From: Hyphomonadaceae bacterium
GTDB taxonomy: Bacteria > Pseudomonadota > Alphaproteobacteria > Caulobacterales > Hyphomonadaceae
Direction of reading: 5' to 3'
Length of the DNA stretch: 64,000 bases
NCBI GenBank assembly: GCA_030697555.1
Contig: JAUYPV010000054.1
Location: 1-64,000, forward strand
Below are positions 1-4,849 of this stretch, piece by piece. Positions within the stretch are counted from its first letter, which is position 1; every line of letters begins with the position of its first letter. Made by a program: the position numbers and the translations under genes. Under the pieces are notes generated by a model that saw only the letters and a program-made list of their open reading frames with translations, ran no database searches and was not told where the DNA came from.

Positions 1-1367
1 CCTTCGGCGACGATGCCGTAGCCTTGGGCGCCGATGCGGTAGGTGAGTTGGGTCCCGTTGAGATTGCCGTTGAAAGAGGAGCCGAGGGAGGGGCCGTTGG
101 TGGCGTTGCCGGTGATGTCGCCGGTGTTGCTGACGTTCATATGCCAGGTGCTGCCGTAGCCGTCCTGCCAGTCGCCGGAGAGGTTGTTGTTCCGGTTGTT
201 GTCCCGATCATTGTCCCAGTTCCCGGCGGACATTTCGTTGATGACGGCGCCGAGGAAGGCGAGGGCGAGGAGGCCGCCGGCGGTCCAGGCGGCCCAGGGC
301 GGGATGCGGGGGCCTTTGCGGGGCTGGCGGGGGTCGAGGGTCTTCCAGTCGACCATTCCGCCGGGGCCGAGGGCGGCCTTGAGGTTTTTGCGGTACTCGG
401 CGACCGATTGCGGCCGGCTGCGGGAGCGGTTCGACAGGCTTTTCTCGATCAGGGCGTCGATACCGGGCGGTATGCCGCTGCGACCGCCGCTGGGGGGCTG
501 CCAGTGGCCCTGCGGCGGGGCGTCCATCAGGAGCTCGTAGAAGATCACCGAGAGCGAATAAAGGTCCGCTGAAGGCCCCACCGTGTCGGGCGCGGTAAGC
601 TGCTCGGGCGCCATGTAGCCGATCGAGCCCGCGGGACCCGAACCGGAAACGCCGGAGGACGCGCCGGTGACGATGGCGATGCCGAAATCGAGGATTTTCA
701 GGGCCGCGCCGGTATCGGAGGGCTCGCTGGTTAGGATGACGTTCTCGGGCTTGAGGTCGCGATGGACGACGCCCTGGGCGTGCGCCGCCTCGAGGCCGTC
801 GAGGATCGCGCTGATGATGCCGACGGCGGTCTTCAGCGAGCAATCCTGGCGCGCCGCCAGGCGTCTCTGGTTCCACGACCGCAGCGATTGGCCTTTGGCC
901 AGCTCCATCGACATGAAGGGCTGGCCGTCGGACTCGCCGACATCGTAGACCGCGATCACGCTGGGATGGCGGACGTTGCGGGCGGTAACGCCTTCCCGGA
1001 TCAGGCGCGTGACGGCATCGCTGCCCTGCAGGCGGTCCGGACGTATCAGCTTCAGGGCCACGTCTTCCGACGTGACCCTGTCGTGCGCCGCATAGACAAC
1101 GCCCGCCCCCCCGGCCCCAATTGTCGATCTGATTTCATAGCGTCCGCAGAACAGCTCGCCCGCGGCGAGCGCCGGCCCGGCGGGCATGGCTGATCCTTTG
1201 GTCGGCCTGCCATCAATTGTCTGCAGGCCTCCGATAGTCTGCACCGGTCCCGCCGCGACCTGCGAAAAACTGGCGGCGGCTGCGACCTCCTCGGCCGTCC
1301 GCCTGCCGCATTCGGAGCAGAAGCGCGCATCGGCCGGCAATGCTGCTGAACAATGGGGGCAATTCAT
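1..1367 (-). CDS. Zinc-ribbon Ser/Thr protein kinase, membrane-anchored (3' end off window)
   Basis: Hanks-type Ser/Thr kinase. Translating upstream of the internal Met at 1187 shows the frame stays open to an ATG at 1367, adding an N-terminal zinc ribbon (CPHC near residue 3, CSEC near residue 21). The kinase domain starts near residue 77: glycine loop GAGGAG, VALK lysine K106, HRDLKPEN at 202-209 and DFG at 227, so all key catalytic residues are present. One membrane segment follows near residues 355-375, then an Asn/Gly-rich outer domain that is cut by the window edge at about residue 455. Its ATG overlaps the TGA of the FHA gene (ATGA), so the two are probably translationally coupled. The kinase likely phosphorylates Thr residues read by that FHA protein (inference). 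Confidence 0.9.
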   Translation of the reverse strand, partial: MNCPHCSAALPADARFCSECGRRTAEEVAAAASFSQVAAGPVQTIGGLQTIDGRPTKGSAMPAGPALAAGELFCGRYEIRSTIGAGGAGVVYAAHDRVTSEDVALKLIRPDRLQGSDAVTRLIREGVTARNVRHPSVIAVYDVGESDGQPFMSMELAKGQSLRSWNQRRLAARQDCSLKTAVGIISAILDGLEAAHAQGVVHRDLKPENVILTSEPSDTGAALKILDFGIAIVTGASSGVSGSGPAGSIGYMAPEQLTAPDTVGPSADLYSLSVIFYELLMDAPPQGHWQPPSGGRSGIPPGIDALIEKSLSNRSRSRPQSVAEYRKNLKAALGPGGMVDWKTLDPRQPRKGPRIPPWAAWTAGGLLALAFLGAVINEMSAGNWDNDRDNNRNNNLSGDWQDGYGSTWHMNVSNTGDITGNATNGPSLGSSFNGNLNGTQLTYRIGAQGYGIVAE

Positions 1368-2614
1368 GATTTCCCTCCTGCTGCCGGCGTACCCAGCGTT
1401 GCGCGCTGGACGTCCGGCTGCCGCGTCAGCGTGACCTGTTCGACGACCCCGTGATGGGTTTCAAAGCGGACATCGATGGCGAGCGCCTGCGGATGCTTGG
1501 GCAACACGACGATGCGCTCGCCGTCTGACAGCGACGCGACCTCGCCCTGGCGCAGGCCCTGATCGCCGACCCGCAGGCCTGACTGGCCCGCGGCTCTTAC
1601 ACAGAGCGCGCCGTTCTGGACGAAGAGGTCGAAATGCCGGCGCGAGATTTCCTCGCTAAGCGCAGCGTTGAGGGCGCCGCCGGCGTCACGGACGACAAGG
1701 CGAGCGTCATTGACGCCGCCGCGCGACTTGATGCGCGAACGCCCCAGAGCAAGCAGGCCGTCAGGCGTGAGGATCGGCCCGGGCGGTCCCGCTTCGTCGC
1801 TGCTGAACCCTTTCCAGGCGAGGCGTACGGTTCGGTCGACGCGGCCGACCTGCGGGTCGCCCCGCAGTCCCCGGGCGCGCTCGAAGCCGTCGGCGCGCGT
1901 TAGCGCCAGCGGCGAGGGCGCGGTGGTAGCCGAATCCTGGTCGCCCCGGCCACGGTCCTCGCCTTCGATCCGGATCGGCGCGTAGACGGTGTGACCTGCG
2001 CCGGCCGTTTCCCCGCCAGCGACATGGATCGTCTGGTTGACGACAACCTTGCCGTCATCCTCGACGCCGATCTCCAGGTTGGCCGCGACAGCGAAAATTT
2101 CCTCTCGCCAGCGGCTGCGGCTGGCGGCGACCAGGATCACTTCCAGACCCTGGCGGCCGGTTTGCTGCAGCGGTTGCGTCTGGAGCGTCCACGGCGCGCT
2201 CTGTCCGGCGTCGAGGCGCTCCCAGGGCAGCTCCTGCTGCTTGCGCTCGCCGGCGCCCTGCCGGACCCAGAATTCCGTGATGAAGAGAGCCCGGCCATGC
2301 GCGCCTGCGTTGGCGACAATGAGCGGAAGCGTCATCGCGGCGCCGACTTTCGCACGCCGCGCCGCGCCTGAGTCGAGATAGAGTTCGAGATTGAAGCAGG
2401 AGGGACAGAAGCCGCTCGCGTCCACCAAGCCGCCGCACTCCTCGTAGGCTGAGCAGCGCAGCAGAAGGCTGCCGCATTCCGCGCAGAACACCGCATCGGC
2501 CGCCGCCGCGGCGCTTGCCTGGCAGCACGCGGGCCGGGAGTGAGCCGCCGCAAGGCTGGCGCCGGTCCGGCCGGCGGCGCTGCGTGCTGCTATGGGAGGA
2601 ACGGAGCGAGGCAT
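1364..2614 (-). CDS. FHA-domain protein with N-terminal cysteine-rich zinc ribbon
   Basis: 416-residue cytoplasmic protein. Residues about 44-74 contain CAEC, CSAYEEC and CPSC, a zinc-ribbon-like cluster. The middle (about 95-240) is beta-rich and unassigned. Residues about 300-390 look like a forkhead-associated domain, with ALGRSR, then EISRRHF and later NGALCV and LSDGERIVV; the GR...S-R-H pattern forms the phosphothreonine pocket in this family. It lies 1 nt after the SPFH gene and overlaps the kinase start by 4 nt, so the three are co-transcribed. The likely role is a phospho-dependent adaptor for the kinase; the partner is inferred. The FHA call is good, the exact domain edges are not. 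Confidence 0.75.
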   Translation of the reverse strand: MPRSVPPIAARSAAGRTGASLAAAHSRPACCQASAAAAADAVFCAECGSLLLRCSAYEECGGLVDASGFCPSCFNLELYLDSGAARRAKVGAAMTLPLIVANAGAHGRALFITEFWVRQGAGERKQQELPWERLDAGQSAPWTLQTQPLQQTGRQGLEVILVAASRSRWREEIFAVAANLEIGVEDDGKVVVNQTIHVAGGETAGAGHTVYAPIRIEGEDRGRGDQDSATTAPSPLALTRADGFERARGLRGDPQVGRVDRTVRLAWKGFSSDEAGPPGPILTPDGLLALGRSRIKSRGGVNDARLVVRDAGGALNAALSEEISRRHFDLFVQNGALCVRAAGQSGLRVGDQGLRQGEVASLSDGERIVVLPKHPQALAIDVRFETHHGVVEQVTLTRQPDVQRATLGTPAAGGKS

Positions 2615-2615
2615 G

Positions 2616-4220: not shown

Positions 4221-4285
4221 GGAATGAGCTTTCTTGATTCAGGAGAGGACGGCTTGATTCAGGAAAGGATGGGGGCCGGGGCCGC

Positions 4286-4849
4286 TCACGCTTCCTCCTC
4301 CTCGGGCTTCCACTTCTTGTCGGTGAAGAAGGTCACGACGTAGTAGAGGATGACGACCGTGGCGACCGTGACGCCGATCGGGTGTTTCTGGACCAGCTCG
4401 ATGATGCGATCGCCGGCCGAGGCTTTCTCGAGCAGGCCGGTGATGTAGGTGACCTGGAAGACTGCGCCGGCGATCATCGTGGCGAGCGAGAACACCGACA
4501 TCAGCAGCGTCATCACGCGGATGAGCCGCTGGAAGGTGGTGAGCTGGGTGCGCGTCTTGCGGCTGGCGCGTTCGTTTTCGGCTTTCTCCGCCTTGTCGAG
4601 GTCGCGCTCGTAGGCGTCGCCGCGCTCCAGCGCTTCGCGGCGCTTCTTCGTGTCGCCATCGAGGAAGTCGGGCCGGGCGCTTGGCCTGATCTTCGCCGCC
4701 TGCACAGGCGTGAGGCCTGACGCGTTGCGGCGCATGGCGATGAAGATCACCGACGCCAGCCAGAGTACGGCAAACACCACCGTGCCCGTGAACAGCCAGT
4801 CGATCAGCGGCCAGTAGCGCTCGGGAATGCCTTCGAGGGTAGCTTGCAT
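4286..4849 (-). CDS. Small three-span membrane protein
   Basis: I do not recognise a named family. The ATG at 4849 is chosen because GGAG lies about 8 nt before it; an upstream in-frame start at 4996 would add a segment without coding character. The 187-residue protein has hydrophobic spans near residues 14-35, 110-133 and 155-175. Between spans 1 and 2 lies a charged cytoplasmic stretch rich in Lys, Glu and Arg (KKRREALERGDAYERDLDKA). The C-terminus is acidic. It precedes the SPFH gene by 65 nt on the same strand, so it may be the first gene of that operon and could anchor the SPFH assembly (inference). Confidence 0.7.
   Translation of the reverse strand: MQATLEGIPERYWPLIDWLFTGTVVFAVLWLASVIFIAMRRNASGLTPVQAAKIRPSARPDFLDGDTKKRREALERGDAYERDLDKAEKAENERASRKTRTQLTTFQRLIRVMTLLMSVFSLATMIAGAVFQVTYITGLLEKASAGDRIIELVQKHPIGVTVATVVILYYVVTFFTDKKWKPEEEEA

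What the first reader, a model, noticed from the sequence alone, without database searches (positions are those of the whole stretch)
1..4849. Kinase, FHA adaptor and SPFH protein all carrying zinc ribbons in one operon
The SPFH protein ends in a zinc ribbon, the FHA protein begins with one and the kinase begins with one (seen only when its start is moved to 1367). The genes are separated by +1 nt and -4 nt. A shared zinc module could be a docking device that assembles a membrane phospho-signalling complex.
Basis: partly seen in the sequence, partly recalled or inferred. Interest (0 to 1): 0.65.

Follow-up and report, generated by a model that had tools for sequence, protein, structure and literature searches.

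The report
Zinc-ribbon kinase–FHA–SPFH membrane signalling operon
A set of neighbouring genes in one family of aquatic bacteria appears to encode a membrane-bound signalling machine, made of an anchor, a ring-forming scaffold, a phosphate-reading adaptor, a protein kinase and usually a protein-cutting enzyme, several of which carry a zinc-binding tag and which seem to be switched on by a dedicated sigma factor.

Summary
Three adjacent minus-strand genes encode an SPFH protein with a C-terminal zinc ribbon, a zinc-ribbon/FHA protein and a Hanks-type kinase with an N-terminal zinc ribbon. Only two frames in the 5-Mb genome pass the Zn_Ribbon_1 cut-off, and both lie here. A kinase-linked ECF sigma gene lies beside it in 19 of 32. 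A fixed-length promoter-like motif precedes the operon in 18 of 18 sigma-bearing loci examined, a nearby small membrane-protein gene, and an unlinked gene family in five genomes. Best reading: a sigma-controlled, membrane-anchored SPFH scaffold gathering a kinase, its FHA reader and a peptidase. Ribbon docking is untested, and the ribbons are of two unlike kinds. The system is nearly confined to Hyphomonadaceae; I found no description of it.

The parts
4286..4849 (-). MEM: 187-aa membrane protein, about 3 TM segments, first gene of the operon
   Evidence: simple hydropathy scan; HMM-matched relatives in 30 of 32 loci, in first place
2616..4220 (-). SPFH protein, 534 aa, no TM segment, long coiled coil
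   Evidence: AlphaFold2 model matches HflK/C, prohibitin, stomatin
2625..2690 (-). C-terminal zinc ribbon of the SPFH protein
   Evidence: PF13240 in genome scan; cysteine pattern in 32 of 32 loci
1364..2614 (-). Zinc-ribbon/beta-sandwich/FHA protein, 416 aa
2396..2524 (-). Eight-cysteine ribbon region of the FHA protein (residues 31-73)
   Evidence: Cysteine pattern in 32 of 32 loci, columns
1439..1831 (-). FHA domain (residues about 262-392); Gly-Arg and Ser-Arg of the phosphate pocket kept
   Evidence: Z 10.0 to Rad53; 31 of 31 ungapped rows
1..1367 (-). Hanks-type kinase with N-terminal ribbon, cut off by the contig end
1302..1361 (-). N-terminal zinc ribbon of the kinase
   Evidence: PF13240 31.2 bits; cysteine pattern in 36 of 36 kinases
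1212..1238 (-). Linker motif TIGGLQTID (residues 44-52), Thr50 nearly invariant: proposed phospho-Thr docking site
240..296 (-). TM segment of the kinase (residues 358-376)
   Evidence: simple hydropathy scan
4881..4907 (-). Promoter-like motif TGACCC-N16-ACGCC, 31 nt before the MEM start codon
5023..5610 (+). ECF sigma factor gene (TIGR02999), divergent from the operon
5613..8030 (+). Long Hanks-type kinase gene next to the sigma gene
   Evidence: start at the ATG after the sigma stop read

Best explanation
It is a sigma-controlled, membrane-anchored phospho-signalling complex. Shown by sequence: one conserved gene unit MEM-SPFH-FHA-kinase(s)-papain-type peptidase; catalytic, phosphate-binding and ribbon residues conserved; a fixed promoter-like motif that tracks the neighbouring ECF sigma gene. 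Inferred: (1) a signal activates the long kinase, which phosphorylates and so activates the ECF sigma, as in PknS-EcfK; (2) the sigma transcribes the operon and a few other membrane-protein genes; (3) the ~3-TM protein anchors an SPFH ring at the inner membrane face; (4) the ribbon kinase, whose C-terminal part beyond the kinase domain varies, autophosphorylates the conserved Thr in its linker; (5) the FHA protein reads that pThr and, together with the ribbons, holds kinase, SPFH and peptidase together; (6) the cytoplasmic peptidase is the output and cuts proteins at the membrane. Steps 1-2 are the best supported, 3-4 plausible, 5-6 the most speculative.
For: Unit: contiguous SPFH-FHA-kinase in 30 of 32 loci, peptidase in 28 of 32. 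Conserved parts: A1-A3; peptidase Gln/Cys/His/Asn invariant in 21 of 21; FHA Gly-Arg and Ser-Arg in 31 of 31 ungapped rows. Folds: SPFH, FHA. Linker Thr motif in 33 of 36 kinases, shuffled mean 4.5, maximum 12 of 36. Sigma: motif in 18 of 18 sigma-bearing loci examined against 5 of 12 others, shuffled mean 0.5, maximum 4 of 30; it also precedes C6 in 6 loci and the displaced FHA gene in L063; 33 matches against 5 for the reversed control in 11 genomes; 5 unlinked sites before one protein family; the only match of a related pattern in the window's genome. Non-random ribbons.
Against: No interaction, phosphorylation or zinc binding was tested. SPFH and kinase ribbons are not matched within loci, and the FHA ribbon is of another kind. 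The FHA Asn usual next to the phosphate pocket (recalled) is variable (6 of 31). The sigma lacks QTTA, the Thr-bearing consensus of ECF43 (0 of 19), and 13 of 32 loci show no sigma gene in view. L026 and L027 show no peptidase, and the window's own peptidase is seen at most as a C-terminal fragment on another contig. The linker and promoter expressions were written after looking at the sequences.
Confidence: 0.5

Rival explanations
1. The ribbons are not docking parts but independent structural or redox-sensing caps; each protein acquired its own, and assembly runs only through FHA-pThr and SPFH contacts.
For: Two unlike ribbon kinds; no within-locus matching of SPFH and kinase ribbons. The FHA ribbon gives a weak match to the PknG rubredoxin profile in 3 of 19 members (best E 0.013); PknG's rubredoxin as a redox sensor is recalled.
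Against: The only two frames over the Zn_Ribbon_1 cut-off in 5 Mb are neighbours in one operon, and five loci have a ribbon on the peptidase too, which independent caps would not predict.
Confidence: 0.35
2. A YdjI-like membrane-stress scaffold: the SPFH protein and its anchor protect or remodel stressed membrane, and kinase, FHA protein and peptidase only tune or dispose of it; signalling is not the main output.
For: YdjI is a soluble SPFH protein recruited by two membrane proteins in an ECF-controlled operon (PMC8581546, passages); same gene logic here. The motif also precedes other small membrane-protein genes.
Against: No PspA-like protein recognised among the four window operon proteins; kinase and FHA reader are as conserved as the SPFH protein.
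Confidence: 0.3
3. The genes are only co-regulated as one sigma regulon and do not form one physical complex.
For: The same motif lies before unlinked membrane-protein genes, and in L063 the FHA gene has moved away from SPFH and kinase and kept a motif of its own.
Against: SPFH-FHA-kinase stays contiguous in 30 of 32 loci, including every locus without a sigma gene in view except L044, which its contig end cuts; FHA-kinase 4-nt overlap in 10 of 31.
Confidence: 0.15

Closest known systems
pspA-ydjGHI operon of Bacillus subtilis (SPFH protein YdjI)
   Same: ECF-controlled operon; soluble SPFH protein that needs membrane proteins for recruitment (PMC8581546, passages)
   Different: No PspA recognised here; FHA, kinase and peptidase added; none of the 19 SPFH members matched PF13421 in the families shown at E<=1 (that YdjI belongs to that profile is recalled)
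ECF43 sigma-kinase pairs (PknS-EcfK of Xanthomonas citri, PknT-EcfP of Vibrio parahaemolyticus)
   Same: ECF sigma gene with a Hanks-type kinase gene in the same locus (PMC13147305, abstract and passages)
   Different: QTTA absent (0 of 19; S-[ST]-[GS]-D in 18 of 19, A-T-G-D in one); target here is an SPFH operon, not a type VI secretion system
Bacterial kinase-FHA modules such as PknB-GarA and PknG-OdhI
   Same: Kinase paired with an FHA protein; GarA and OdhI FHA folds among the matches of the model
   Different: Here the FHA protein carries a ribbon and a beta-sandwich and is tied to an SPFH protein and a peptidase
Archaeal Meth_adaptin ESCRT loci
   Same: SPFH protein with coiled coil and zinc ribbon; other ESCRT groups include FHA proteins and kinases (PMC10936438, passages)
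   Different: No Vps4, ESCRT-III or adaptin protein recognised here; SPFH and FHA occur in different ESCRT groups there
Zinc-ribbon kinases of GAP1-N2 conflict systems
   Different: Those sit with a GTPase, PP2C phosphatase and vWA protein; none recognised here

Membership tests
SPFH superfamily | SPFH fold | tested here: met
   Foldseek E 1e-9 to HflK/C-type and prohibitin chains; VIA Z 12.8; PF01145 matches 1 of 19 members at E 1.9e-5
FHA domain proteins | FHA fold and phosphate-binding Arg and Ser | tested here: met
   PF00498 in 19 of 19 members at E<=1, best 9.5e-8, window member below the cut-off; Z 10.0 to Rad53; Arg and Ser in 31 of 31 ungapped rows. Roles of these residues recalled
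Hanks-type kinases | Kinase domain with HRD and DFG motifs | tested here: met
   PF00069 E 1e-40; HRDLKP invariant in 25 of 25, first two positions of DFG invariant, the Gly nearly so
Zinc ribbons | Two CxxC knuckles | tested here: met
   SPFH 32/32 and kinase 36/36 (one kinase has a longer first knuckle). FHA protein has a different eight-cysteine pattern, 32/32
Zinc ribbons | Zinc binding | not testable with these tools
   Needs metal analysis of purified protein
Papain family C1 | Cys-His-Asn triad with oxyanion Gln | tested here: met
   Relatives only: invariant in 21 of 21, PF00112 in the 4 peptidases scanned; the window's own copy is not in the window
ECF43 sigma-kinase systems | Hanks-type kinase gene associated with the ECF sigma gene | tested here: met
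   Long kinase in the same locus in 19 of 19 sigma-bearing loci: next to the sigma gene in 14, across the operon in 5
ECF43 sigma-kinase systems | QTTA consensus in region 2.2 (Thr in 88% of members per PMC13147305) | tested here: not met
   0 of 19; a Ser or Thr is kept one residue after the first Asp position and the second Asp is kept. Not filed as a member
PspA-YdjGHI system | PspA homologue in the operon | tested here: not met
   No PspA profile among Pfam matches of the four window operon proteins, the SPFH set or the peptidases scanned
Known anti-phage systems | Match to a system-specific PADLOC model | tested here: inconclusive
   Only kinase-domain models match the two kinases; a weak MkoB match (E 0.00075) for the sigma; none for the other five proteins

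The most novel reading that the evidence does not exclude
A previously undescribed bacterial signalosome: an SPFH ring at the membrane assembles a kinase, its FHA reader and a papain-type protease through zinc ribbons and a phospho-Thr switch, under a kinase-activated sigma factor with its own promoter class. It would be a bacterial way of coupling phospho-signalling to localised proteolysis.
Probability: 0.25. Interest if true: 0.85.

Novelty: new variant of a known kind. Interest (0 to 1): 0.62.

Why it matters
If true, it joins four strands usually studied apart (SPFH membrane scaffolds, Hanks kinases, FHA readers, regulated proteolysis) in one compact, conserved unit, present in genera with named strains (Hyphomonas, Henriciella), with a predicted sigma factor, promoter and regulon that can be tested directly. 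How bacterial SPFH proteins recruit partners is an open question that the ribbons make testable.

Tried and rejected
Chance co-occurrence of ribbons: rejected. A recently copied ribbon cassette: tested by permutation and not supported. Known anti-phage system: PADLOC gave almost only generic kinase matches. Wider occurrence: FHA profile over 385 genomes of the class gave the own genome and one weak FHA-only match; SPFH profile over 289 genomes of the class gave the own genome alone; a broadened SPFH profile over 398 genomes of the phylum gave the own genome and one genome of the same family; 149 genomes around the Gemmatimonadaceae-labelled one, itself included, gave that genome alone. The label of that genome: its SSU rRNA is at most 82.4% identical in the 15 rows listed, from several phyla, but the identity bands of that search report 3 records at 95-99% and 12 at 90-95% that were not listed; so this neither proves nor excludes the label, and a misbinned contig is not excluded either. 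Sequence search of solved structures: no SPFH match by sequence, weak FHA matches. Rest of the window genome's peptidase: not found beyond a C-terminal match on contig C171. Literature searches for a description found none; the library is open-access only.

All 32 were found through the FHA gene, so contiguity is conditional on it. L056 and L063 are not among the 30 upstream stretches because no MEM gene is in view there. The motif match in L029 overlaps the coding start and is probably chance; that in L066 lies about 130 nt further upstream than the rest.
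Full report
Observation. The window begins at a contig end. On the minus strand, in order of transcription, lie a 187-aa membrane protein (4286-4849), a 534-aa SPFH protein (2616-4220), a 416-aa FHA protein (1364-2614) and a kinase from ATG 1367, cut by the contig end at 455 aa. The ribbons are real cysteine patterns. In the whole genome only the kinase and SPFH frames pass the Zn_Ribbon_1 cut-off, out of six matches at E<=1. The FHA ribbon is an eight-cysteine module of a different type.

Conservation. The FHA protein was found in 21 of 101 genomes, the own genome included, and in 27 loci of the GTDB r220 collection, mostly Hyphomonadaceae by title (Hyphomonas, Henriciella, MAGs). 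I left out GTDB loci judged to be the same contigs and kept 32 distinct loci, the window included. SPFH-FHA-kinase is contiguous in 30; L044 ends with its contig and L063 is rearranged. A C1 peptidase is in the locus in 28; the window and L044 are cut by contig ends, and L026 and L027 have none in the stretch read. Ribbon cysteine patterns are present in 32 of 32 SPFH, 32 of 32 FHA and 36 of 36 kinase proteins. Five loci (L031, L032, L061, L065, L071) have a ribbon pattern on the peptidase as well. Identity to the window is 34-47% for FHA, 44-50% for SPFH and 38-49% for the kinase, so the cysteines are kept across real divergence. All 32 loci were found through the FHA gene.

Distribution. Profiles found almost nothing outside the family: 2 of 385 class genomes for FHA, one of them the own genome and the other a weak partial match; 1 of 289, the own genome, for SPFH; 2 of 398 phylum genomes, both of this family. 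A complete but diverged operon sits in a MAG titled Gemmatimonadaceae (L071), alone among the 149 genomes searched around it.

Folds. The SPFH model (pLDDT 73, pTM 0.38) matches HflK/C, prohibitin and stomatin. The FHA model (pLDDT 81.6) has an FHA domain at about 262-392 (Z 10.0 to Rad53; GarA among the matches) and a beta-sandwich at about 74-186 resembling ApaG and a TRAP subunit (Z about 8.2-8.7). The FHA Gly-Arg and Ser-Arg are kept in 31 of 31 ungapped rows, while the Asn position is variable. The peptidase has Gln, Cys, His and Asn invariant in 21 of 21. By a simple hydropathy scan SPFH has no TM segment, MEM mostly three and the kinase at least one. Two kinases examined end in DUF805 (L025, L030).

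Linker motif. Between ribbon and kinase domain, 33 of 36 kinases have [GA][LIM]xT; shuffled linkers give a mean of 4.5 and a maximum of 12. Two of the three misses read SLNT and QLIT; the third, L028_8, lacks it. The expression was chosen after seeing the alignment. I infer that this Thr is autophosphorylated and read by the FHA domain.

Sigma factor and promoter. The window's ECF sigma gene is TIGR02999; relatives of it lie in 19 of 32 loci, always with a long Hanks-type kinase gene in the locus. Upstream of MEM, TGA[AC]C followed by [AG]CGC[CT] at a total length of 27 occurs in 18 of 18 sigma-bearing and 5 of 12 other loci; shuffles give a mean of 0.5 and a maximum of 4 of 30. The motif was seen by eye first, so independent checks matter. 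A scan of the loci with a stricter form gave 32 matches: 21 at MEM (including a probable chance match in L029, and L038 labelled SPFH because of overlapping ORFs), 6 at C6, 1 at the displaced FHA gene of L063, 4 elsewhere, and none assigned to the sigma or long-kinase genes. A longer pattern in 11 genomes gave 33 matches against 5 for the reversed control. Of the sites away from the operon, five (G037, G060, G043, G058, G021) precede members of one ~185-aa protein family without a Pfam family over its cut-off (one member scanned). In the window's genome a related pattern finds only the site at 4881-4907 (reversed control: 1 match).

Mechanism. The best reading is given in the explanation section. 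The sigma link is the firmest inference, by analogy with PknS-EcfK (PMC13147305, abstract and passages), although QTTA is absent. The anchoring of a soluble SPFH protein by membrane partners has a precedent in YdjI (PMC8581546, passages). Ribbon docking remains a hypothesis; the permutation result speaks against a shared, homogenised module but not against docking of unlike ribbons.

Literature. Searches found no description of this combination. Seen: passages of PMC10936438, PMC7159879, PMC13147305 and PMC8581546; other papers in listings only. Roles of FHA residues, of GarA and OdhI, of PknG's rubredoxin and the YdjI Pfam profile are recalled.

Noticed in passing
L080, L090, L093, L100, L106 (G037, G060, G043, G058, G021): A ~185-aa protein family of unknown function follows the promoter-like motif, away from the operon, in five genomes; no Pfam family for the one member scanned.
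   Followed up: partly
L032, L034, L035, L059, L061, L065: A small multi-TM protein gene ('C6') near the operon has the same motif before it in six loci.
   Followed up: partly
L075 1-166 (G000 contig C171): A frame like the C-terminus of the C1 peptidase runs off a contig end in the window's genome, next to an unrelated upstream gene; it may be a remnant or a misassembly.
   Followed up: partly
L039, L040, L041, L043 peptidase C-termini: Some peptidases end in repeats of GPGAGGGY after a conserved helix.
   Followed up: no
L099 (G021:C2): A patatin-like protein (by eye, GGGxRG and GTSTG motifs recalled) follows a match of the motif at 175 nt.
   Followed up: no
L025-L029: These operons carry two ribbon kinases; at least the one examined in L025 (first of its pair) ends in DUF805.
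   Followed up: no
L071: A complete, diverged copy of the operon lies in a MAG titled Gemmatimonadaceae, alone among 149 genomes searched around it; horizontal transfer or misbinning not resolved.
   Followed up: partly
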